A stretch of DNA of 64,000 bases from Neobacillus sp. PS2-9 (GTDB lineage Bacteria; Bacillota; Bacilli; Bacillales; Cytobacillaceae), in the NCBI RefSeq assembly GCF_030915525.1, contig NZ_CP133269.1:2133001-2197000 (forward strand), given 5' to 3'. Under the pieces are notes generated by a model. It saw nothing but the letters and a program-made list of their open reading frames with translations, had not been told where the DNA came from and made no database searches. Each line of letters starts with the position of its first letter. Position 1 is the first letter of the stretch. Shown piece by piece: positions 36,632 to 47,177 of the stretch. Position numbers and translations under genes: made by a program.

Positions 36632-36690
36632 TTGAATATTTAAGTTTTGGGAGTATAATTAAACTTATAACATACTAACTGGTTAGTATG
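36632..36690 (+). promoter_or_regulatory. Promoter and TetR-type operator of the acyl-CoA operon
   Basis: TTGAAT (36632-36637), 16 bases, TATAAT (36654-36659). Just downstream is the palindrome CATACTAAC-TG-GTTAGTATG (36671-36690). A closely related palindrome lies at 41107, after the local TetR gene, so both are probably its operators. Confidence 0.75.
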
Positions 36691-36708: not shown

Positions 36709-37917
36709 TTGGATTTTTCATATTCTCAAAAGGTTAAAGATTTGCAAGAAAAGTTAACAGCATTCATGGGGGCTTATGTTTACCCAAATGAATCTGTGTA
36801 CGAACAGCAATTAAATGAACAGGAGAGTCGTTGGATTGCAGTCCCGCCAATCATGGAGGAACTAAAGGAAAAGGCAAAAGCAGAGGGTTTATGGAATTTG
36901 TTTTTACCTGAAAGTGAATTTGGTGCAGGTCTAACCAATTTGGAATATGCTCCTCTTTGCGAAATAATGGGGCGTTCGTTAATTGGACCAGAAGTGTTTA
37001 ATTGTAGTGCACCTGATACAGGTAATATGGAAGTCATTGTTCGTTATGGTAAGGAACAGCATAAGGAAGAATGGCTGAAACCACTGCTGGCAGGGGAAAT
37101 TAGGTCATGTTTCTCGATGACAGAACCAGCGGTTGCCTCCTCTGATGCGACCAACATAGAAGCACGAATTGAACGCGACGGTGATGAATACGTCATTAAT
37201 GGACGAAAATGGTGGTCATCTGGTGCCGGTGATCCTCGCTGTAAAATAGCAATTGTTATGGGGAAAACAGATCCGAATGCTAACCGTCATGAACAACAAT
37301 CTATGATTCTAGTTCCTCTTGATACCCCTGGGGTAAAAATTGAACGGATGCTGCCAGTGTTTGGATACGATCATGCTCCACATGGACATGGTGAGATTAC
37401 GTATGAAAATGTAAGAGTTCCTGCCGACAATATCCTTTGGGGAGAAGGAAAGGGATTTGCTATTGCTCAAGGTAGACTGGGTCCTGGAAGAATCCATCAC
37501 TGTATGAGATTAATCGGTGCAGCTGAGCGAGCACTTGAGGAATTGTGTAAGCGTGTTCAAAGTCGGACCGCTTTTGGAAAGCCGCTTTCTCGCCAAGGTG
37601 TAATTGGGGAGTGGATTGCTGATTCAAGGATTGAAATTGAACAAGCTAGGTTGCTAACTTTAAAAGCTGCTTACATGATGGATACTGTTGGTAATAAAGA
37701 AGCAAAAACAGAAATTGCCATGATTAAGGTGGTTGCACCATCGATGGCATTGCGTGTGATTGACCGTGCAATTCAAGCATTAGGTGCTGCTGGGGTTTCT
37801 AATGATTTTACATTAGCAGCTCAATGGGCAAATGCAAGGACATTGAGATTGGCTGACGGTCCTGATGAAGTTCATCGTGCTCAGCTGGCAAAACTCGAAC
37901 TACGTAAATATCAATAA
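36709..37917 (+). CDS. ACAD10/11-type acyl-CoA dehydrogenase
   Basis: 402 residues from TTG 36709, giving the N-terminus [19 protein letters not shown] usual for this group; the ATG at 36688 is part of the operator. FAD-binding segments [16 protein letters not shown] and [12 protein letters not shown] are present. The C-terminus [40 protein letters not shown] and [11 protein letters not shown] closely follow mammalian ACAD11. The base glutamate of classic ACADs is aspartate in ADGPDEVH, as in ACAD10/11. In the P. putida lva pathway the related LvaC removes phosphate from 4-phosphoacyl-CoA. First gene of the operon. Confidence 0.88.
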
Positions 37918-37962
37918 AAACGATAGCTAAATTGTGAACTAGATAGAGAAGGGTTGGTACCT

Positions 37963-38715
37963 ATGAGATTAAATAAAAAGATTGCAATTGTAACAGGCGG
38001 CGGAAGCGGCATCGGACGTGCAGCCGCCGTCCGTTTTGCCAAAGAAGGAGCGACGGTTGCGGTAGCAGATATTAATTCTATCATGGGTGAAGAGACCGTC
38101 AGCATCATAAAAGAGGCAGGGGGAGAGGCTGTTTTTGTTAAAACGGATGTAGCCGATTCAGAACAAATCAAGCAGTTAATTCAGATTACATCCAATACAT
38201 TTGGCGGCTTACATATTATGTTCAACAATGCAGGTATTGGTAATTCCGAAGTACGGAGTGTGGATTTGGCAGAAGAGGAATGGGACAGAGTAGTTGATAT
38301 TAACTTGAAAGGCGTATTTCTTGGGATTAAATATGCTGTCCCTGAGATATCCAAATCAGGCGGCGGTTCAATTATTAATACCTCTAGTTTACTTGGACTG
38401 AAGGGTCAAAAGTATATGGCTGCTTACAATGCCTCTAAAGCAGGAGTAGTTGTACTGACAAAAAACGCTGCACTTGAGTATGGAAAATACAATATTAGGG
38501 TGAATGCGATTGCTCCAGGTGTGATCGATACAAAAATAATTGAAAACTGGAAACAGAACGAGCGTAAGTGGCCAATCATTTCTCGTGCCAATGCACTTGG
38601 AAGAATTGGCACACCAGAGGAAGTAGCAAATGCGGTTTTATTCTTAGCGTCAGATGAGGCCTCATTTATTACAGGAACCACTCTTTCAGTTGACGGTGGA
38701 GGACTTACGTTTTAA
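37963..38715 (+). CDS. Short-chain dehydrogenase/reductase
   Basis: 250 residues from ATG 37963, 9 bases after AAGGG. NAD-type fold: IAIVTGGGSGIGRAAAVRFA with an aspartate after strand 2 (VAVADINS, favouring NAD), MFNNAGIG, NTSSLLG (serine) and YNASK. Closest in style to 3-hydroxyacyl/3-oxoacyl or cyclopentanol dehydrogenases. Probably oxidises or reduces a hydroxyacyl intermediate of the same pathway. 45 bases after the ACAD gene. Confidence 0.88.
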   Translation: MRLNKKIAIVTGGGSGIGRAAAVRFAKEGATVAVADINSIMGEETVSIIKEAGGEAVFVKTDVADSEQIKQLIQITSNTFGGLHIMFNNAGIGNSEVRSVDLAEEEWDRVVDINLKGVFLGIKYAVPEISKSGGGSIINTSSLLGLKGQKYMAAYNASKAGVVVLTKNAALEYGKYNIRVNAIAPGVIDTKIIENWKQNERKWPIISRANALGRIGTPEEVANAVLFLASDEASFITGTTLSVDGGGLTF

Positions 38716-38746
38716 TTTAATATGATTACCATATGGAGGGGAACGG

Positions 38747-40357
38747 ATGAGCGAGAACAAAGCCTGGTTGGCACATTATCCTGAAACAATAGAAAAAAAT
38801 GTAACCATTCCGAATAAACCAATGGGACAAATTCTTCATGATACTGCCTCAAAATTCCCTAACAATTTTGCCCTGTCTTTTTATGGAAAAAAGATCACCT
38901 ATGGTCAACTTCAAGCCTTAGCACATGATTTTACCTCAGCACTTCAACAAAATGAGGTTCAAAAAGGGGACCGGGTAGCCATCATGCTTCCTAACTGCCC
39001 GCAATATGTCATTTCCTATTATGGAATCCTTAATGCTGGGGGAATTGTTACCCAGGTGAACCCTATGTCAGTTGAACGGGAACTTGAGTATATCCTAAAT
39101 GATTCAGGTACTGAAACTATTGTGGTACTTGATGCATTATATCCAAGGGTGAAAAGTGTTCAATCTCAAACAAATTTGAAGAATATTATTGTTGTTAGCT
39201 TACAGTCCTCAGGACAAGATTTTGCGCCGGATAGGAGCTTTGAAAATTTCCTAACAGAAGGTAACGGGAATGTGGTCCCAATTGAATTTGAACCGGAACA
39301 TGATGTATCAGTGCTTCAATATACTGGAGGTACTACAGGTCGGTCTAAGGGTGCTATGCTGACTCACCGAAACGTGTTAGCTAATGTGATCCAGTGTTAT
39401 GAATTTTTTAAACATGATTTGGAAGTTGGAAAGGAAAAATGTTTAACCGTAATTCCACTCTTCCATGTATTTGGAATGAGTTCTTGCATGAATCTTTCTA
39501 TATACACAGCAGGGGAATCAATCATGCTTCCTCGTTTTGATTTAGAAGAAGTCCTTAATACGATAAAAAATGAACAACCTACAATGTTCCCAGGAGTTCC
39601 AACCATGTATGTGGCGATTACGAGTCACCCTAAGGCAGAGGAATATGGAATTAATAGTATTCGAACCTGTAACAGTGGTAGTGCACCAATGCCTGTTGAG
39701 TTGCTCCGTAGCTTCGAAAAGAAAACAGGTTCGAAGATTTTAGAAGGCTATGGTCTGTCTGAGGCTTCACCAACCACACATTGTAATCCTCCATTTGCAG
39801 AGCGGAAACCTGGTAGTGTAGGTATTGGAATGCCTTCTACTGAATATAAAATTGTCGATTTAGCAACGGGTACGAAAGAGGTATCTGTAGGTGAACTTGG
39901 GGAGGTCATCATTAAAGGTCCGCAAATTATGAAGGGCTATTGGAATATGCCTGAAGAAACTGCTAATACATTACGGGATGGTTGGCTTTATACAGGCGAT
40001 ATTGCCAAAATAGATGAAGATGGTTATTTATACATCGTCGATCGAAAAAAAGATATGATTATTGCTAGCGGCTTCAATATTTATCCTCGCGACATCGAAG
40101 AGGTGTTATATGAACATCCTGTTGTTCAAGAAGCTGTTTGCATTGGAGTTCCCGACCCATACAGGGGAGAAGATGTGAAGGCTGTAATAGTCTTGAAGGC
40201 TGGTAAAAAGGCTACTGAAGAAGACATAATTCAATTCTGTAGGCAGAACCTTGCGGCATATAAGGTGCCTCGTTTGGTTGAATTTCGTGAGCAATTGCCT
40301 AAAACAGGTGTGGGAAAAATCCTTCGCCGGGCCTTGAGAGACGAAGTCAAACAATGA
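38747..40357 (+). CDS. Acyl-CoA ligase (AMP-forming)
   Basis: 536 residues, GGAGGGGAA site. Adenylating-enzyme motifs in order: LQYTGGTTGRSKGAMLTH near residue 190, EGYGLSEASPTTHCNPP, WLYTGDIAKIDEDGYLYIVD, RKKDMIIASGFNIYPRDIEE and the C-terminal lysine region PKTGVGKILRRALRDE. Activates a carboxylic acid to its CoA thioester with ATP; a medium-chain or hydroxylated acid is likely from the context. Last gene of the first operon. Confidence 0.92.
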   Translation: MSENKAWLAHYPETIEKNVTIPNKPMGQILHDTASKFPNNFALSFYGKKITYGQLQALAHDFTSALQQNEVQKGDRVAIMLPNCPQYVISYYGILNAGGIVTQVNPMSVERELEYILNDSGTETIVVLDALYPRVKSVQSQTNLKNIIVVSLQSSGQDFAPDRSFENFLTEGNGNVVPIEFEPEHDVSVLQYTGGTTGRSKGAMLTHRNVLANVIQCYEFFKHDLEVGKEKCLTVIPLFHVFGMSSCMNLSIYTAGESIMLPRFDLEEVLNTIKNEQPTMFPGVPTMYVAITSHPKAEEYGINSIRTCNSGSAPMPVELLRSFEKKTGSKILEGYGLSEASPTTHCNPPFAERKPGSVGIGMPSTEYKIVDLATGTKEVSVGELGEVIIKGPQIMKGYWNMPEETANTLRDGWLYTGDIAKIDEDGYLYIVDRKKDMIIASGFNIYPRDIEEVLYEHPVVQEAVCIGVPDPYRGEDVKAVIVLKAGKKATEEDIIQFCRQNLAAYKVPRLVEFREQLPKTGVGKILRRALRDEVKQ

Positions 40358-40482
40358 TAGATGACGTTATATTGAGAGAGTGAAAAGCACAATGACAAAT
40401 ATTTATTCATTCATTAAAGGAGCGTTTGATAGTATGGTATAATTTCTATTAGATATTTTTTACAGATTGCGGGGACAGAACG

Positions 40483-41049
40483 GTGAAGGAAAAAATCACA
40501 GGACAAAGCATCCAATTATTTGAAAAGAAGGGTTTTAGTGAAACCTCGATTCAGGATATAGTGGATTCGCTAGGTGTAACAAAGGGGACTTTTTACTATT
40601 ACTTTTCAAGTAAAGAGGAACTGCTCATGGACATCCATCTAGGGTATATTAATGAGCTGCTTGTCCACCAGGAACAAATATTAAATGATACATCAAAAAA
40701 TTGTAAGCAAAAATTATTTGAGATTGTGAATATGCTTATAACGAATATTCAACGGCAGGGAGCAGCAGCAAAGATCTTTTTTAGAGAAATGAAAAATCTA
40801 AGCTCTGAGCGTCTGGCGTTGATTGTTCCTAAACGGGATCAATTTCGTTTAAATATTGAAGCACTTATTAACGATGGCATTTCCAAAAAGGAGTTTCGGC
40901 AAGATCTAAATGCACGTATTGTTACTATGGGTATTCTAGGTATTACCAATTGGAGCTATCAATGGTTTAATCCAAATGGCATGGTCTCTGATCGTGAAGT
41001 CGCAGAGATTTTTGTCGAAATGATTTTAAAGGGAATTCAAGAAAATTGA
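40483..41049 (+). CDS. TetR-family regulator of the acyl-CoA cluster
   Basis: 188 residues, GTG start after GCGGGGA. N-terminal HTH: LFEKKGFSETSIQDIVDSLG, VTKGTFYYYFSSKEELL, then an all-helical ligand domain (LGITNWSYQWFNPNGMVSDR near the end), the FadR/AcrR/PfmR layout that senses acyl-CoAs. A TATAAT box precedes it at 40438. It lies between two operons that both carry the CATACTAAC/GTTAGTATG-type palindrome, so it probably represses both. Confidence 0.88.
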   Translation: MKEKITGQSIQLFEKKGFSETSIQDIVDSLGVTKGTFYYYFSSKEELLMDIHLGYINELLVHQEQILNDTSKNCKQKLFEIVNMLITNIQRQGAAAKIFFREMKNLSSERLALIVPKRDQFRLNIEALINDGISKKEFRQDLNARIVTMGILGITNWSYQWFNPNGMVSDREVAEIFVEMILKGIQEN

Positions 41050-41057
41050 AGAAAAAA

Positions 41058-41099
41058 TGAGAGAGGGTTCTTTAAATAAACATACCCCCTCTTTTTTTA
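41058..41099 (+). terminator. Terminator after the TetR gene
   Basis: AGAGGG and CCCTCT around a 19-base loop, then TTTTTTT. Confidence 0.7.
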
Positions 41100-41106
41100 A
41101 AAAATA

Positions 41107-41126
41107 AATACCAACCGGTTAGTATT
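41107..41126. promoter_or_regulatory. Second TetR-type operator
   Basis: AATACCAAC-CG-GTTAGTATT, differing from the 36671 site in the outer base pair and one inner base. It lies before the thioesterase-led operon. Confidence 0.7.
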
Positions 41127-41172
41127 AAACGTATTTATATCTACATTGTTGTGTGAGGTGAATATCAACAGG

Positions 41173-41574
41173 ATGCATGAGATACGGGTACAAGTAAGAT
41201 TCGGGGAAACTGATGCGTTGGGTCATATTAATAATACAAGTTACTTCATTTATTTGGAGGAAGCACGGATCCGCTTTATTGAAGCATTAGGTTATAAGAT
41301 GGATAGTGGGAATTGGAATTTTATTCTTGCGTCAACCAAATGCGATTTTATCAGCCAAGGCTATTTTAATCAAAGCCTACTGATTAATACCTATGTGTCG
41401 AAAATAGGAAACAAGAGTTTTCAATTAGAACATGATATTATCTGTTCTAAAACTAACCAACTTTTAGCTAAGGGAAATGCAATCATGGTTTACTTTGACT
41501 TTGAGAAACAAAAAAGTGAACTGCTGCCTGACTTGTTAAAAGAAGAACTTAAAAGCTTTTTTGTTCACTGTTAG
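41173..41574 (+). CDS. Acyl-CoA thioesterase (4-hydroxybenzoyl-CoA thioesterase fold)
   Basis: 133 residues from ATG 41173 (12 bases after GAGGTG; upstream in-frame starts are worse). Hot-dog fold with the active-site motif VRFGETDALGHINNTSYFIY and then LEEARIRFIEALGY. Hydrolyses an acyl-CoA, which may release CoA when the pathway is overloaded. First gene of the second operon. Confidence 0.85.
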   Translation: MHEIRVQVRFGETDALGHINNTSYFIYLEEARIRFIEALGYKMDSGNWNFILASTKCDFISQGYFNQSLLINTYVSKIGNKSFQLEHDIICSKTNQLLAKGNAIMVYFDFEKQKSELLPDLLKEELKSFFVHC

Positions 41575-41629
41575 ACATGACATTTCATTTTAAAGAGACT
41601 GAATTTTCTGAAAAGAAAGGAGGAAACAT

Positions 41630-42706
41630 ATGTCGCGCCAAATGAATAAGGATACAATTCCTGTTCGAAAAGGAGAAGAGTTGAATTTAGTAGTATTGGA
41701 AAAGTTCTTACGTGAAACGTTTGAAACGATGCCAGCCGGGCCACTTGAGATTTTACAATTCTCTGCTGGTCATTCAAATTTAACCTATCAACTAAAAATG
41801 GGTGAGTGGGAAGCGGTTTTAAGACGTCCTCCACTTGGCCCAGTTGCACCGAAGGCTCATGATATGAAACGGGAATATAAAATACTTTCTGAGTTAAATC
41901 CGTTTTTTTCAGTGGCGCCCAAGCCCCTTCTTTTTTCAGATAACATCGACATTGTGGGTAGCTCATTTTTCCTCATGGAAAGAAAAAATGGGATCGTGAT
42001 TGACACTTCCTTCCCAGATGGAATTCAAGTGACAAAAGAACTTTGTCAACACCTATCTGAAGTTATGGTTGAGAAATTGGTAGAACTACATGCCATCGAC
42101 TATAAACAAACCGGTCTATCATTAATTAGCAAGCCAGCAGGCTTCATGGAAAGACAGGTACACGGTTGGATTAGCAGGTATGAAAGGGCTAAAACGGATG
42201 AAATAGCTGTTGTTGATACCTTGAAAAAATGGCTAGTTGACCATATTCCTAGAGAACATGAATCTACAATTATTCATTATGATTATAAGTTCAATAATGC
42301 CATGTATAATGAGCAATTTACAGAAATGGTAGGTTTATTTGACTGGGAGATGACCACAGTTGGAGACCCACTGGCGGACCTTGGCGTTGCTATGAGCTAT
42401 TGGAATCAAAGTGATGATTCCGACCTGTTGATTAAAGGACTTGGAAGGGAGCCAGTCACGGCAGTTTATGATGGATTTTTCACCAGAAATCAATTTATTG
42501 AGCTTTATGCCCAAAAAAGTGGACGCGATATTTCCAACTTTAATTTCTATTTGACCTTTGCTTACTTTAAGCTGGCTGTGATTGGACAACAAATCTATTA
42601 TCGCTTTAAAAAAGGTCAGACAAATGATATGCGTTTTGCTAATTTTAACCATTTTGTAAAAAATCTCATCCTGCACGCAGCACATGTGGCTGATCAAAAG
42701 GTTTAA
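41630..42706 (+). CDS. Aminoglycoside-phosphotransferase-like kinase (LvaA/ACAD10-11 kinase type)
   Basis: 358 residues, AAGGAGG site. N-lobe FSAGHSNLTYQLKMGEWEAV and VLRRPPLG, catalytic loop TIIHYDYKFNNAMY near residue 215 (Asp base, Asn metal ligand), and GLFDWEMTTVGDPLADLG near 237 (second metal ligand). This is the kinase subgroup that accompanies acyl-CoA dehydrogenases, as in the N-terminal part of mammalian ACAD10/11 and P. putida LvaA, which phosphorylates the 4-hydroxyl of 4-hydroxyacyl-CoA. Not an antibiotic-resistance kinase. Next to the ComB gene in the same operon. Confidence 0.88.
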   Translation: MSRQMNKDTIPVRKGEELNLVVLEKFLRETFETMPAGPLEILQFSAGHSNLTYQLKMGEWEAVLRRPPLGPVAPKAHDMKREYKILSELNPFFSVAPKPLLFSDNIDIVGSSFFLMERKNGIVIDTSFPDGIQVTKELCQHLSEVMVEKLVELHAIDYKQTGLSLISKPAGFMERQVHGWISRYERAKTDEIAVVDTLKKWLVDHIPREHESTIIHYDYKFNNAMYNEQFTEMVGLFDWEMTTVGDPLADLGVAMSYWNQSDDSDLLIKGLGREPVTAVYDGFFTRNQFIELYAQKSGRDISNFNFYLTFAYFKLAVIGQQIYYRFKKGQTNDMRFANFNHFVKNLILHAAHVADQKV

Positions 42707-42723
42707 AGGGGAGCTGAAAGTGC

Positions 42724-43458
42724 ATGACAAAAGTTCACCTTCTCATGAAGAAAGAAGAAATTAAAGAAGAGAAATTGGCAGAAGGAAATAAAATTGCCGT
42801 TGTTTTAGATGTGCTTTTGGCAACAACAACAATCGTATCTGCATTAAAGGAGGGTGCTAAGGAAGTCATTCCCGTTTTAAACAGCAATGAAGCCTTAGAA
42901 CTCGCAAAAAGATATAAACAAGGTGAATATGTTCTTGCAGGTGAGTTGAATGCTAACCCCATTGAAGGGTTTGTTTATCCGAGTCCAACCTTAATTGGAG
43001 AAGCCATCGCTGGTAGGACATTAATTTTATCTACTACGAATGGAACTGTTGCTTTAAGAAAATCACTATATGCAGATAAAATATATATCGCTTCAATAAT
43101 GAATAATCCTGCTGTTGCCAATGCCCTTCAAAAATGTAACGATAATCAAACCATTCTTGTTATCTGTTCCGGAAATTCAGGAGAAATAAGTCTTGAAGAT
43201 TTTTATGGTGCTGGACATTTCATAGATTGCTTGTTGAAAAATGGGAAGTTTGACTTAACAGATGCAGCTAAAGCAGCATTGTATTTTTATAGAGGCCAGG
43301 ATGATTCATATGAAATACTGCAAGATTCCTATGTTGGTAAATTACTTGAAAAATATAATCAACAAACAGATTTGACATTGGCAGCATCAAAAGGAAGCGC
43401 TTCAATTGTTCCCGTTTTAAAGAATGGAAGAGTAGTAATTGATACCATCTTTGTTTGA
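42724..43458 (+). CDS. ComB-type 2-phosphosulfolactate phosphatase family protein
   Basis: 244 residues, AAAGGGGAG site, 17 bases after the kinase gene. Family features: KIAVVLDVLLATTTIVSALK, EYVLAGELNANPIEGFVYPS, TLILSTTNGTVAL, VICSGNSGEISLEDFYGAGH. ComB removes phosphate from 2-phosphosulfolactate in coenzyme M or spore sulfolactate synthesis, but no other genes of those routes are here. Sitting beside a kinase that makes a phosphate ester, it may act on a phosphorylated intermediate or by-product of this pathway. That role is a guess. Confidence 0.85.
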   Translation: MTKVHLLMKKEEIKEEKLAEGNKIAVVLDVLLATTTIVSALKEGAKEVIPVLNSNEALELAKRYKQGEYVLAGELNANPIEGFVYPSPTLIGEAIAGRTLILSTTNGTVALRKSLYADKIYIASIMNNPAVANALQKCNDNQTILVICSGNSGEISLEDFYGAGHFIDCLLKNGKFDLTDAAKAALYFYRGQDDSYEILQDSYVGKLLEKYNQQTDLTLAASKGSASIVPVLKNGRVVIDTIFV

Positions 43459-43508
43459 AGAAAGCTCTAGTTCCGAAGTAAATAATTTTCATGAGGGGGG
43501 TGGGGAAG

Positions 43509-44282
43509 ATGAGGTTTTCGCAATCGATTGCAGTAGTGACAGGGGCTGGAAGCGGAATTGGCAGGGCTTCTGCTATTCGCCTTGCAAACGAAGGTGCCAA
43601 GGTCATCTTAGTTGGAAGGACAAGGGTGAAACTCGAAAAAACAGCGGAGGAAATCAATCGCACGAGTAAGATCCCGCTCGCTGAAATATTCACGGCTGAT
43701 TGTACAGATTCAGAGGATGTAGCGGAATTAGCCGAATATGTTCAAGTGCAATATGGAGACCTACATGTTCTTGTAAATAATGCAGGCGGTTCTCGACATT
43801 CAAGAATTTTGGAGATAACAGAACAGGACTGGGACTATGTCCAGGATGCTAATTTAAAAAGTGTGTTTTTAGTTTCAAAGGCGCTAGGGAAAATCATGAT
43901 AGAAGGGGCAAAGCATGAAGAACAACGAAGCCGAGCAATTGTAAACGTCGCCTCGTTGTCAGGACATCAGGCAGGTGTAGAAATACCTCATTATAGTGCA
44001 GCTAAAGCCGGGGTCATTAATTTCACACGATCACTTGCTTTAGAATTAGCACCTTTTGGCATTCGAGTCAATTCTGTGTCACCCGGATTTGTTGAAACTC
44101 CTCTAACAGAAAAAGGTTTAAAAAATGATCGATTCGTAAGAGCAATACAAAGAAACACAGCTTTACAGCGTGTGGGTAATCCTGAAGAAATTGCCAGTGT
44201 CATCGCTTTTGCTGCTTCACCTGAAGCATCCTATATGACAGGAGCGGATCTTTTAGTTGACGGTGGTTGGCTCATTAAATAA
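43509..44282 (+). CDS. Short-chain dehydrogenase/reductase
   Basis: 257 residues from ATG 43509; the ATG at 43491 is upstream of the GAGGGGGGTGGGGAAG site. IAVVTGAGSGIGRASAIRLA with a following arginine (ILVGRTRVK, favouring NADP), VLVNNAGGSR, VNVASLSG (serine) and HYSAAKAG (Tyr-x-x-x-Lys). Likely an oxoacyl or hydroxyacyl reductase/dehydrogenase. Second SDR of the cluster, with different coenzyme preference from the first. Confidence 0.88.
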   Translation: MRFSQSIAVVTGAGSGIGRASAIRLANEGAKVILVGRTRVKLEKTAEEINRTSKIPLAEIFTADCTDSEDVAELAEYVQVQYGDLHVLVNNAGGSRHSRILEITEQDWDYVQDANLKSVFLVSKALGKIMIEGAKHEEQRSRAIVNVASLSGHQAGVEIPHYSAAKAGVINFTRSLALELAPFGIRVNSVSPGFVETPLTEKGLKNDRFVRAIQRNTALQRVGNPEEIASVIAFAASPEASYMTGADLLVDGGWLIK

Positions 44283-44334
44283 ACGTGATTAGAAACCATT
44301 TAACTATATTATTTGATATGAAAGGAAGATGTAT

Positions 44335-45114
44335 ATGACTCAAGAACATTTAATTGTTGAAAAATTAGGACCGGTACTTTCTCTAACCTTAAATCGACCA
44401 GAAAGCTTAAACGCTTTTAGTCCAGAAATGATAATAGGATTAAAGGATGCTCTTTATAGTGCACAACAGGATGAGGACGTGCAGGTCATTGTTTTATCAG
44501 GAGCTGGCCGTTCATTTAGTGCGGGTGGCGATGTTAAAACCATGGGGCAGGCTAAAGGTGTTCAAGTATACGATCATATCGGCAGGCTTAATGAACTCAT
44601 CTTACTAATGAAAGATACGGAAAAACCAATTATTGCGGCAGTACATGGGTTTGCTGCTGGTGCCGGTGTCAACTTAGCCCTCGCTTGTGACTTAATTGTG
44701 GCTGCTGAAGAAAGTAAATTTGCCTTAAGCTTTTCACAGGTAGGGCTGGTTTCCGATGGGGGCGGTTCGTATTTACTACCAAGGTTGATTGGACCACATT
44801 TAGCAAAGCAATTCTTGTTTACAGCTGAACCAATTCCAGCAGAAAGATTATATCAGCTGGGTGTTATTAATTACCTTGTTCCAGTTGAAAAGCTTCAGGA
44901 GGAAACAACGAAGTTTGCTCTGAAATTAGCACATGGTCCTGGAAAAGCATACGGAAAGCAAAAGAAGTTAATTGATCAAGCATTCACATCCTCACTGGCG
45001 GACATTCTTGAACAGGAGCGTCTGATCCAGACACTGATGGTACAGACAGAGGACCACCAAGAAGGCATTGCAGCATTTAAAGAAAAGAGAAAACCAGCTT
45101 TTAAAGGGAAGTAG
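44335..45114 (+). CDS. Enoyl-CoA hydratase/isomerase
   Basis: 259 residues from ATG 44335, 8 bases after AAAGGA. Crotonase fold: ITRxx-like LTLNRPESLNAFSPEM, first oxyanion region SGAGRSFSAGGDVKTM near residue 60, second HGFAAGAGVNLALACDLIVA near 108, and LVSDGGGSYLLPRLIG. One of the two usual catalytic glutamates is replaced around FSQVGLVSDGG, as in PaaG-type isomerases, so a double-bond isomerase is as likely as a hydratase. This fits conversion of a 3-enoyl to a 2-enoyl-CoA. Confidence 0.87.
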   Translation: MTQEHLIVEKLGPVLSLTLNRPESLNAFSPEMIIGLKDALYSAQQDEDVQVIVLSGAGRSFSAGGDVKTMGQAKGVQVYDHIGRLNELILLMKDTEKPIIAAVHGFAAGAGVNLALACDLIVAAEESKFALSFSQVGLVSDGGGSYLLPRLIGPHLAKQFLFTAEPIPAERLYQLGVINYLVPVEKLQEETTKFALKLAHGPGKAYGKQKKLIDQAFTSSLADILEQERLIQTLMVQTEDHQEGIAAFKEKRKPAFKGK

Positions 45115-45126
45115 GAGATGAATGGT

Positions 45127-46101
45127 ATGAAAGCAGTACAATTAAAGGAATATGGTGGACCGGAAGTATTAAATCTAGTGGATATTGAAAGACCTGTTCC
45201 TAAAGGTCACGAAGTACTGATAGAAATCAAGGCTATTGGTGTGAACTATGCTGATACAGCGCGAAGAGAAGGACAATATGTGGTAAAAACACCTCTTCCG
45301 TTCATACCCGGTGCTGAGATTGCGGGAATTGTCGCTGAAGTGGGAGAAAATGTAACAAAAGTAAAGCCAGGGACCAGAATTGTTACGTTAATTGAATCGG
45401 GAGGATATGCTGAATTTGCTCTAGCCGATGAACGTGCTCTAATTCCAATCCCTGAACAATTAGATTTTCATACAGCAGTTGCCCTACCACTCCAAGGTTT
45501 AAGTGCTTATCATATTTTAAAAACAATGGGTCGTTTAGAAAAGGGGGAAAGTGTCCTCGTTCATGCGGCTGCAGGCGGCGTAGGTACCATCGCTGTACAG
45601 CTTGCTAAATTGTTCGGTGCAGGAAAAATAATTGCTACCGCAAGCTCCGATGAAAAATTAGCGTTAGCTCGTGAAATGGGAGCAGATGTACTTATCAACT
45701 ATACAGAGCCTGAATGGGAACAACAGGTTCTCGAGGCAACAGATGGTAGAGGTGTAAACGTTGCCCTAGAAATGGTCGGCGGGGAAGTTTTCAATAAAAC
45801 CGTGAGGTGTCTTGCCACATTTGGTCGACTTGTCATCTTTGGTGCCGCAAGCGGGGAACAAAGTCGTTTCTATCCATCCTCACTAATGGCAAGAAATCAA
45901 TCAGTGATCGGATTCTTTCTGCCACAAATTATGAGAAAACAAGAATTATTGCAACCTAGTTTAGTAGAGCTTCTTACCTATTTAGGTGAAGGGAAACTAA
46001 AACTTACAATAGGCGGTGTTTTCCCATTAGAGGAAGCAGCACAAGTCCATACCCTTTTACAATCACGGAAAACACAAGGAAAACTCATTTTAGAACCATA
46101 A
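45127..46101 (+). CDS. Zinc-free quinone oxidoreductase/MDR-type enoyl reductase
   Basis: 324 residues from ATG 45127, 9 bases after AGGAG which overlaps the preceding stop. Medium-chain dehydrogenase fold: MKAVQLKEYGGPEVLNLVDI, VNYADTARREGQY, FIPGAEIAGIVAEVGENV, and the NADPH loop VHAAAGGVGTIAVQLAKL. It lacks the cysteine cluster of zinc alcohol dehydrogenases, so it is a QOR-like NADPH reductase of quinones or enones. Confidence 0.88.
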   Translation: MKAVQLKEYGGPEVLNLVDIERPVPKGHEVLIEIKAIGVNYADTARREGQYVVKTPLPFIPGAEIAGIVAEVGENVTKVKPGTRIVTLIESGGYAEFALADERALIPIPEQLDFHTAVALPLQGLSAYHILKTMGRLEKGESVLVHAAAGGVGTIAVQLAKLFGAGKIIATASSDEKLALAREMGADVLINYTEPEWEQQVLEATDGRGVNVALEMVGGEVFNKTVRCLATFGRLVIFGAASGEQSRFYPSSLMARNQSVIGFFLPQIMRKQELLQPSLVELLTYLGEGKLKLTIGGVFPLEEAAQVHTLLQSRKTQGKLILEP

Positions 46102-46181
46102 ACAGTTAGCACCTAGTCTACCCATACTAATCTATCCATTTTTCTTATTTTTAGTAGAAAATTGAAAGGGTGAACCAATTT

Positions 46182-47177
46182 ATGAAAAATGTTGAAACAG
46201 TTACAGGTCCAATTCCCGTTGATAAACTTGGAAAGACACTTATTCATGAACACTTTATTTTTGGATATCCAGGATTCCAAGGTGACGTAACTCTAGGTCC
46301 TTTTAAGGAAGAAGAGTTCTTAGAAGCAGCTATTGCTGTAGCAAGACAAATCCAGAGTTTTGGTGTTCAAACGGTTGTGGACCCGACTCCTAATGAATGT
46401 GGTAGAGATCCACTATTCTTAAAAAAAGTTTCAGAAGCAACTGGATTACAAATTATTTGTGCGACCGGATATTATTATGAAGGGGAGGGGGCTCCTCCAT
46501 ACTTCAAGTTCAGACAGGCATTAGGTACTGCTGAAGAAGAAATTTATGAAATGTATAAAAAAGAGATATCAGAAGGAATTGCCGGAACAGGAGTTAAACC
46601 AGGCATTATTAAGCTAGCATCCAGCAAAGACCAGATTACTGAGTATGAAAAAATGTTCTTCCGGGCTGCAGCAAGGGTACAAAAGGAAACTGGCATCGTA
46701 ATCTTAACTCATACACAAGAAGGAACAATGGGTCCAGATCAGGCGAGAATGTTAATTGAACTTGGTGCTGACCCAAGTAAGATTATTATTGGTCATATGT
46801 GCGGAAATACTAACCCTGAATACCATAAGGAAGTCATGGACCAGGGAGTCAGAATCGGGTTTGACCGGTTTGGAATCCAAGGAATGGTTGGAGCACCATT
46901 CGACCAAGAAAGAGTGGCAACTTTAATGGATTTGTTGGATGCTGGTTACGAAGATCAAATTTTACTAGCTCATGATTCCGTTAATATTTGGTTAGGACGG
47001 CCTCCAATTATGAACGAGCAAGTGATGAAAATAATGGAGAATTGGCACCCTGGTCATATCTTTGAAAACATCCTACCAACACTTAGAGAGAATGGGGTAA
47101 CAGAGACACAAATCGATAAAATGCTAGGCAGGAACGCTGAAGCATTGTTTACTGGAGCACCATCAAAAGTTTTTTAA
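46182..47177 (+). CDS. Phosphotriesterase-family metallohydrolase, probable lactonase
   Basis: 331 residues from ATG 46182. All five metal ligands of the family are present: LIHEHFIF (His-x-His, near residue 22), the carbamylated lysine in PGIIKLASS (near 143), VILTHTQEG, IIIGHMCG, and the aspartate in LLAHDSVN (near 263). Family members in Gram-positive bacteria (PTE-like lactonases) open gamma- or delta-lactones; organophosphate hydrolysis is usually only a side activity. In this cluster it could turn a lactone into the 4- or 5-hydroxy acid that the ligase and kinase then use. 80 bases after the QOR gene. Confidence 0.87.
   Translation: MKNVETVTGPIPVDKLGKTLIHEHFIFGYPGFQGDVTLGPFKEEEFLEAAIAVARQIQSFGVQTVVDPTPNECGRDPLFLKKVSEATGLQIICATGYYYEGEGAPPYFKFRQALGTAEEEIYEMYKKEISEGIAGTGVKPGIIKLASSKDQITEYEKMFFRAAARVQKETGIVILTHTQEGTMGPDQARMLIELGADPSKIIIGHMCGNTNPEYHKEVMDQGVRIGFDRFGIQGMVGAPFDQERVATLMDLLDAGYEDQILLAHDSVNIWLGRPPIMNEQVMKIMENWHPGHIFENILPTLRENGVTETQIDKMLGRNAEALFTGAPSKVF

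What the first reader, a model, noticed from the sequence alone, without database searches (positions are those of the whole stretch)
36709..47177. Probable 4-hydroxyacyl-CoA (lactone-derived acid) catabolic cluster with a built-in lactonase candidate
Seen: an ACAD whose C-terminus follows mammalian ACAD11 ([16 protein letters not shown]), an APH-like kinase of the acyl-CoA type (HYDYKFNN), an AMP ligase, two SDRs, a PaaG/ECH-type protein, a thioesterase, a QOR-like enzyme, a ComB-type phosphatase and a complete phosphotriesterase-family hydrolase, in two operons. Known: in P. putida LvaA, LvaC, LvaD and LvaE activate levulinate, reduce it, phosphorylate the 4-hydroxyl and eliminate phosphate; mammalian ACAD10/11 combine the kinase and ACAD parts. 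Inferred: the hydrolase opens gamma-lactones, the ligase makes 4-hydroxyacyl-CoA, the kinase phosphorylates it and the ACAD removes phosphate. There is no LvaB-like partner, and the ComB and lactonase members are additions that I do not recall from described pathways.
Basis: partly seen in the sequence, partly recalled or inferred. Interest (0 to 1): 0.75.

Follow-up and report, generated by a model that had tools for sequence, protein, structure and literature searches.

The report
Hydroxy-acid and lactone breakdown gene cluster
A soil-type Bacillus relative carries two co-regulated operons that look able to open lactones and feed the resulting 4-hydroxy fatty acids into fat burning by the same kinase-plus-dehydrogenase trick that mammals use, together with an altered phosphatase-family protein that appears to be a partner of the kinase.

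Summary
They form two gene groups, each preceded by a copy of one palindromic TetR-type operator (36672-36689, 41108-41125) that recurs in relatives. The ACAD is of the ACAD11/LvaC type: it has the phosphate-contact residues and catalytic Asp of mouse ACAD11 and groups with it (100/99). The kinase has the ACAD11-kinase catalytic residues. The phosphotriesterase-like protein is 65% identical to the lactonase GkaP, with 11 of 11 checked residues kept.

In 249 genomes of the order (114 with the kinase), 111/111 with the ACAD, 94/95 with the cluster-type ComB and 35/35 with the lactonase carry the kinase. Lactonase and ComB are accessories: they come with the kinase, but the kinase often lacks them.

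The new point is ComB. It has lost residues invariant in the ComBs compared, so it should not be called a 2-phosphosulfolactate phosphatase. It sits beside the kinase, where other phyla have a histidine phosphatase with Ser for the second catalytic His, and ACAD10 has a HAD domain. One such histidine phosphatase, in place of LvaB in Pseudomonas citronellolis, is already in print.

Substrates are unproven. GkaP prefers delta- to gamma-lactones, and LvaA was not available for the tree.

The parts
36632..36659 (+). promoter-like site (TTGAAT-16-TATAAT) of operon 1, just upstream of operator 1
   Evidence: such sites are no more frequent than in shuffles (32 vs 31.1), so only its position argues for it
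36672..36689 (+). operator 1, ATACTAACTGGTTAGTAT, palindrome
   Evidence: recurs at this place in many relatives
36709..37917 (+). ACAD11/LvaC-type acyl-CoA dehydrogenase (4-phosphoacyl-CoA phosphate-eliminating, inferred)
37954..38715 (+). SDR oxidoreductase 1 (hydroxyacyl/ketoacyl-CoA reductase or dehydrogenase, inferred)
38747..40357 (+). AMP-forming acyl-CoA ligase
40483..41049 (+). TetR regulator (TetR_C_24); best NCBIfam hit Bacillus FadR, below its cut-off
41108..41125 (+). operator 2, ATACCAACCGGTTAGTAT, before operon 2
41146..41574 (+). 4HBT-family acyl-CoA thioesterase
41630..42706 (+). APH-fold kinase, proposed 4-hydroxyacyl-CoA kinase
42724..43458 (+). ComB-family (PF04029) protein of a kinase-linked subfamily; Arg32, Arg75, Asn86 and His204 of the compared ComBs replaced
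43491..44282 (+). SDR oxidoreductase 2
44329..45114 (+). crotonase-family enoyl-CoA hydratase/isomerase
45118..46101 (+). PIG3-type quinone oxidoreductase-like MDR enzyme
46170..47177 (+). PLL-B-type phosphotriesterase-like lactonase, 65% identical to GkaP

Best explanation
The cluster is a TetR-controlled catabolic module for 4-hydroxy acids, with a lactonase as optional entry. Proposed order: (1) the PLL-B lactonase opens alkyl lactones to hydroxy acids; (2) the AMP ligase makes the hydroxyacyl-CoA; (3) the APH-fold kinase phosphorylates the 4-hydroxyl; (4) the ACAD11-type flavoenzyme eliminates phosphate, with internal FAD reduction and reoxidation, to 2-enoyl-CoA; (5) the crotonase-type enzyme, the SDRs and thiolases encoded elsewhere finish beta-oxidation. 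The ComB-family protein is the kinase's partner and either removes phosphate from misdirected 4-phospho compounds (wrong isomer, free acid) or senses them and restrains the kinase. Shown here: sequence relationship of the parts, active-site residues, linkage, shared operator. Inferred: every reaction in this organism, the lactone type, and ComB's role. Steps 3-4 are reported for homologues (ACAD10/11, LvaA/LvaC, Burkholderia proteins; PMC12440821 and PMC11342911, passages).
For: ACAD: 473 bits to mouse ACAD11 against 151 bits for the best ordinary ACAD. R626, H634, R637 and D753 of mouse ACAD11 (phosphate contacts and catalytic Asp in PMC12440821, passages) are present in the window protein; R/H/R in 22 of 22 and D in 21 of 22 ACAD11-type rows (1 gap; the mouse and window rows counted), while 3 of 4 other ACADs have Glu at the base position. 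Clade support 100/99 with mouse ACAD11 inside. Kinase: D220, N225, R176 equivalents. Lactonase: 65% identity to GkaP, 11 of 11 checked residues incl. six metal ligands and Tyr99. Co-occurrence in the same 249 genomes: ACAD with kinase 111/111; ComB with kinase 94/95, 80 of 99 ComB genes start within 1.5 kb of a kinase start; lactonase with kinase 35/35, 19 of 35 within 21 kb. In four clusters from four other genera (L105-L108) kinase-ComB is followed by a Liv-type ABC transporter and then, after one to three genes, the lactonase (Pfam for L105 only). Shared operator.
Against: GkaP prefers delta-lactones (9.9x10^5 vs 7.3x10^4 s-1M-1), whose 5-hydroxy acids should need no kinase; cells with ACAD10 formed no phospho product from 5-hydroxyhexanoate (PMC11342911). 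The lactonase is in only 14 of 80 kinase loci and 35 of 114 kinase genomes. 22 of 80 loci show no ACAD of this type within reach (some loci are cut short), though 20 of 20 genomes searched, the own one included, have one somewhere. ComB is not next to the kinase in 25 of 80 loci; 20 of those 25 genomes were searched and 16 have no such ComB at all, so it is not essential. Co-occurrence was not corrected for phylogeny.
Confidence: 0.72

Rival explanations
1. The core is a 4-hydroxy (or levulinate-type 4-oxo) acid pathway, and the lactonase is a detoxification or delta-lactone enzyme that merely shares the regulon.
For: GkaP prefers delta-decanolactone; 79 of 114 kinase genomes have no such lactonase; 16 of 35 lactonase genes are not within 21 kb of a kinase (7 on the same contig but further off, 9 on a contig without a kinase, where assembly breaks may play a part). 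Of 13 such regions opened, 6 have the lactonase beside or near an AMP ligase (L112, L115, L116, L119, L122, L123), 5 do not (L114, L117, L118, L120, L121), and in 2 (L113, L124) my ORF picking lost the lactonase.
Against: All 35 lactonase genomes have the kinase against 114 of 249 overall (Fisher 4.7e-14, uncorrected for kinship); the lactonase is the last gene of operon 2, 68 bp after QOR, with no terminator-like site between.
Confidence: 0.25
2. Quorum quenching: the lactonase and ligase degrade N-acyl-homoserine lactones, as proposed for the Rhodococcus qsd operon.
For: qsd has a PLL lactonase, an acyl-CoA ligase and a TetR repressor (PMC6262395, passages).
Against: The closest homologues are PLL-B, described as exclusive oxo-lactonases (PMC4323659, passages); AHL breakdown gives no reason for a 4-hydroxyacyl-CoA kinase and ACAD11-type enzyme. 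The Rhodococcus authors themselves describe a gamma-lactone catabolic pathway (PMC3689677, passages).
Confidence: 0.05
3. ComB is an ordinary 2-phosphosulfolactate phosphatase that happens to lie in the operon.
For: PF04029 214.6 bits; D29, E74, N106-G107-T108, D159 and G164 kept.
Against: Arg32, Arg75, Asn86 and His204, invariant in 30 of 30 comparison ComBs, are replaced (Leu/Met, mostly Tyr/Leu, Pro, Val/Ile) in the 60 sequences from the fetched kinase and lactonase loci; 94 of 95 genomes with this type have the kinase.
Confidence: 0.08

Closest known systems
lva operon of Pseudomonas putida / P. citronellolis (LvaA, LvaB, LvaC, LvaD, LvaE)
   Same: kinase, ACAD of the LvaC/ACAD10-11 type, SDR and AMP ligase; P. 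citronellolis has a phosphatase-family gene beside the kinase (PMC6692424, passages)
   Different: TetR/operator instead of the LvaR-type regulator; lactonase, crotonase, QOR and thioesterase present; ComB instead of LvaB or histidine phosphatase; LvaA/LvaC sequences themselves were not compared here
mammalian ACAD10 / ACAD11
   Same: diagnostic ACAD residues and kinase catalytic residues; ACAD10 also carries a phosphatase-family (HAD) domain next to the kinase that restrains it (PMC11342911, passages)
   Different: separate genes; ComB fold instead of HAD; kinase only 27% identical to mouse ACAD11's; ACAD10 not compared by sequence
PLL-B lactonases GkaP/GKL (Geobacillus kaustophilus) and DrOPH
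   Same: 65% identity to GkaP, identical at 11 checked active-site positions
   Different: here in a defined catabolic operon; the biological function of PLLs is called unclear in PMC4323659 (passages)
Rhodococcus qsd operon (QsdR, QsdA, QsdC)
   Same: PLL lactonase, acyl-CoA ligase, TetR regulator (PMC6262395, passages)
   Different: no kinase or ACAD named in the qsd passages read; QsdA not compared by sequence
ComB, 2-phosphosulfolactate phosphatase (1vr0)
   Same: fold family, E 2e-37
   Different: four residues invariant in the comparison set replaced

Membership tests
ACAD10/11-LvaC type acyl-CoA dehydrogenases | Arg626, His634, Arg637 (phosphate contacts) and catalytic Asp753 of mouse ACAD11 | tested here: met
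   all four in the window protein; the four other ACADs have other residues except an Arg at 637 in one
ACAD10/11-LvaC type acyl-CoA dehydrogenases | falls in one clade with ACAD11 apart from ordinary ACADs | tested here: met
   100/99 support, 22 rows against 4; some long branches
ACAD10/11-LvaC type acyl-CoA dehydrogenases | turns 4-phosphoacyl-CoA into 2-enoyl-CoA without an electron acceptor | not testable with these tools
   needs enzyme assay
LvaA / ACAD10-11 kinases | catalytic Asp220 and Asn225, Arg176 | tested here: met
   (Arg86 could not be mapped reliably; the outgroup 9fsg also has these three, so they show a working kinase fold more than specificity)
LvaA / ACAD10-11 kinases | groups with LvaA / ACAD11 kinases in a tree | tested here: inconclusive
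   Bacillales clade 99/99, mouse ACAD11 with 3dxp and Caballeronia/Sulfitobacter kinases 99/99, order unresolved; LvaA sequence not held
lva operon | LvaB homologue beside the kinase | not tested
   no LvaB sequence available; ComB lies next to the kinase
PLL-B lactonases | six metal ligands, Tyr99, Arg230 of GkaP | tested here: met
PLL-B lactonases | oxo-lactone hydrolysis | not testable with these tools
   needs assay
2-phosphosulfolactate phosphatase (ComB) | residues invariant in the comparison ComBs (Arg32, Arg75, Asn86, His204, window numbering) | tested here: not met
   30/30 in comparison set, replaced in the window and in the kinase-locus set
Catalytic histidine phosphatases (for the partners of other lineages) | two catalytic His (RHG and the second His; role recalled) | tested here: not met
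   RHG kept, second His is Ser in 16 of 17 opened loci (the 17th, L172, was not picked up by the scan) and in 11 of 11 aligned, against His in 3 own-genome members aligned (the fourth, L176, was not recovered)

The most novel reading that the evidence does not exclude
The 4-hydroxyacyl-CoA kinase repeatedly acquired, in different lineages, an unrelated and catalytically altered phosphatase fold as its partner: a HAD domain lacking one Asp in ACAD10, a histidine phosphatase with the second catalytic His changed to Ser in Proteobacteria, Streptomyces and Deinococcus, and a ComB with four otherwise invariant residues changed in Bacillales. These would be product-sensing brakes, or repair phosphatases for misphosphorylated 4-hydroxy acids, and LvaB would hold the same slot.
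Probability: 0.35. Interest if true: 0.78.

Novelty: new variant of a known kind. Interest (0 to 1): 0.6.

Why it matters
The native role of PLL lactonases is described as unclear (PMC4323659, passages); this operon gives PLL-B enzymes a concrete, testable one (lactone catabolism upstream of an ACAD11-type pathway). It also offers bacterial systems for asking why this kinase keeps company with phosphatase-family proteins, a question open for ACAD10's HAD domain and for LvaB.

Tried and rejected
Considered and set aside: quorum quenching; ordinary fatty-acid operon (the ACAD residues argue against an ordinary ACAD); ComB as sulfolactate enzyme. A PDB comparison of the Ideonella histidine phosphatase found nothing at E 0.001. 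A literature search for ComB active-site residues was useless because 'comb' matches 'combined'. No structure prediction was run. The first ACAD residue table used numbering one off; corrected. The ComB table counts 61 'cluster' rows; one carries exactly the letters of the own-genome paralogue (L003), so I read it as 60 rows from fetched kinase and lactonase loci; that each of the 60 touches a kinase was not checked. The paralogue itself also lacks Arg32, Arg75 and His204, so these residues are not universal in PF04029. The 30 comparison ComBs are the 30 best-scoring places of a Bacillota draw (94 of 149 genomes had a match), hence biased to typical members. Histidine phosphatase: 46 plasmid records; of 37 examined, 31 lie within 0.8 kb of a kinase (30, one more), one is 24 kb away, five have no kinase within 3 kb (L165, L166, L167, L172, L174); nine were not examined. 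Plasmid rows include near-identical strains. In the own genome the operator pattern has 6 places at up to 2 mismatches against 2 for the reversed control pattern, so the two weakest places may be chance. Statements that something was not found in print rest on searches in an open-licence library only; Rand et al. 2017 is not held.
Full report
What is there. The region holds eleven complete genes on the + strand: ACAD, SDR, AMP ligase and TetR, then thioesterase, APH-fold kinase, ComB-family protein, SDR, crotonase, QOR and phosphotriesterase-family hydrolase. The window lies in a single-contig genome of 5.19 Mb with one match to this kinase. The kinase's best named relatives are Neobacillus and Bacillus records (83% to N. 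bataviensis), so I call the organism Neobacillus-like.

Operons and regulator. An 18-base palindrome, ATACTAACTGGTTAGTAT, lies at 36672-36689 before the ACAD and a one-mismatch copy at 41108-41125 between TetR and thioesterase. In the 80 kinase loci fetched (80 of 275 relatives kept), 136 sites with up to three mismatches were found, 106 of them up to 600 bases upstream of ACAD (47), kinase (27), thioesterase (13), SDR1 (10), ligase (7) or TetR (2), and 30 elsewhere; two loci (L046, L057) had none; a mononucleotide shuffle of 30 loci gave 3 hits in 573 kb. The own genome has four other copies with up to two mismatches, against two places for the reversed control pattern. One, with a single mismatch, is in a cluster at 3.08 Mb with a Liv-type permease (70% to that of L106), an AMP ligase 66% identical to the one beside the lactonase in L105, a TetR 57% identical to the window's, two thiolase-like genes and an ordinary ACAD (thiolase naming by eye). 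Another, with two mismatches, lies before genes that look like a PHA granule operon (naming recalled). So the module may be part of a wider acyl-CoA regulon, perhaps served by several related TetR proteins.

The dehydrogenase. It scores 473 bits with mouse ACAD11 and 151 with the best ordinary ACAD. PMC12440821 (passages) names R626, H634, R637 as contacts of the 4-phosphate and D753 as catalytic base; all four are in the window protein, and in the four other ACADs compared the base is Glu in three. The tree puts it with mouse ACAD11, 4hr3 and ACADs lying near kinases in Deinococcus, Azospirillum, Streptomyces and others, 100/99 apart from the four other ACADs (some long branches).

The kinase. 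Nearest solved chains are 9o56 (485 bits), 3dxp (156) and ACAD11 (148), then a drop to 39 bits. Catalytic residues are kept. Identity to mouse ACAD11's kinase is 27%. In the tree the mouse kinase joins 3dxp, Caballeronia and Sulfitobacter kinases (99/99) and the Bacillales kinases with 9o56 form their own group (99/99); which is nearer to LvaA could not be tested.

The lactonase. It is 65% identical to GkaP, and 11 of 11 checked residues are identical. GkaP hydrolyses gamma-hexyl-gamma-butyrolactone (7.3x10^4 s-1M-1) but prefers delta-decanolactone (9.9x10^5; PMC4338136 section 6). PLL-Bs are described as exclusive oxo-lactonases and the biological function of PLLs as unclear (PMC4323659, passages).

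Survey. The same 249 genomes of the order were searched with four proteins (combined after dropping weak rows, see Tried and rejected). Kinase: 114 genomes. ACAD11-type: 111, all with the kinase. Cluster-type ComB: 95, of which 94 with the kinase; 80 of 99 genes start within 1.5 kb of a kinase start. GkaP-type lactonase: 35, all with the kinase; 19 of 35 within 21 kb. Kinase without lactonase: 79 genomes; kinase without this ComB: 20. The dependence is one-way, as expected of an entry enzyme and of a protein acting on the kinase's product. Kinship was not corrected for. In L105-L108, from four other genera, kinase-ComB is followed by a Liv-type transporter and then the lactonase, after an AMP ligase (L105, L107), an AMP ligase and two hydrolase-like genes (L106) or one hydrolase-like gene (L108) (Pfam run on L105 genes; hydrolase naming by eye). 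Of 13 opened regions where the lactonase is not near a kinase, 6 have an AMP ligase beside or near it, 5 do not, 2 could not be read. In some close Neobacillus relatives the ACAD, ligase, thioesterase, ComB, second SDR or lactonase is missing from an otherwise collinear cluster; 20 of 20 genomes searched, the own one included, have an ACAD11-type gene somewhere.

ComB and the partner slot. I opened ten plasmid regions with kinase homologues, nine outside Bacilli: in seven of them a histidine phosphatase gene follows the kinase, in six directly and in one after a single gene. The three without are Rhodococcus opacus, Haladaptatus and the Bacilli plasmid, which has no ComB there either. That phosphatase subtype occurs in 46 plasmid records; of 37 examined, 31 lie beside a kinase, one is 24 kb away and five have none within 3 kb. 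The RHG motif is kept but the second catalytic His is Ser in 16 of 17 loci opened (the other was not picked up by the scan), while the three own-genome members that could be aligned have His (the role of the second His is recalled knowledge of the superfamily). No such gene was found in the 80 Bacilli loci and no ComB in the 20 plasmid loci. The ComB of kinase loci keeps D29, E74, N106-G107-T108, D159 and G164 but has lost Arg32, Arg75, Asn86 and His204, invariant in 30 of 30 comparison ComBs. In mammals the ACAD10 kinase is joined to a HAD domain that lacks one Asp, has negligible phosphatase activity and restrains the kinase (PMC11342911, passages). In P. citronellolis a histidine phosphatase gene lies beside the lvaA homologue and no lvaB is found; LvaB binds LvaA in P. 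putida (PMC6692424, passages). That one-species observation, and the idea that it may remove phosphate, are prior art. What I did not find in the library searched is the general pattern, the residue losses, or ComB in this role. Against it: ComB is not next to the kinase in 25 of 80 Bacilli loci (one of these contigs ends there), and 16 of 20 such genomes have none.

Verdict. The core pathway is a known kind in a lineage where I found no report of it. The lactonase link and the ComB slot are the new parts. A cautious reading is an accessory repair or control protein; the bolder reading is repeated recruitment of altered phosphatase folds by one kinase.

Noticed in passing
L057, L058, L059, L060, L071, L075 (just after the kinase): In Planococcus/Planomicrobium the gene after the kinase looks like a cytochrome P450 (about 400 aa) instead of ComB, with the ACAD upstream in 5 of these 6 loci; a P450 could supply the 4-hydroxyl group. 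Identification by eye only.
   Followed up: no
L187 (own genome 3075000-3089000): A second catabolic cluster at a copy of the same operator, with a Liv-type permease and AMP ligase homologous to those beside the lactonase in other genera.
   Followed up: partly
L189 (own genome 3833000-3845000): A two-mismatch operator copy lies before what looks like a PHA synthase/phasin operon (naming recalled).
   Followed up: no
L155 1753-2841; L164 1-501: The Deinococcus NW-56 kinase/ACAD cluster contains an SMP-30/strictosidine-synthase-like gene, a possible second kind of lactonase; in D. radiodurans the cluster lies near a SOD-family gene, and a D. radiodurans SOD fused to a beta-propeller lactonase is in print (PMC12362111, listing only); whether it is this gene was not checked.
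   Followed up: no
L004-L014 against the window: Near-identical operon context with clean presence or absence of single genes (ACAD, SDR2, thioesterase, lactonase) among close Neobacillus relatives.
   Followed up: partly
own genome 2887751-2888410 (-): A second, divergent PF04029 protein (90.7 bits) that also lacks Arg32, Arg75 and His204.
   Followed up: no
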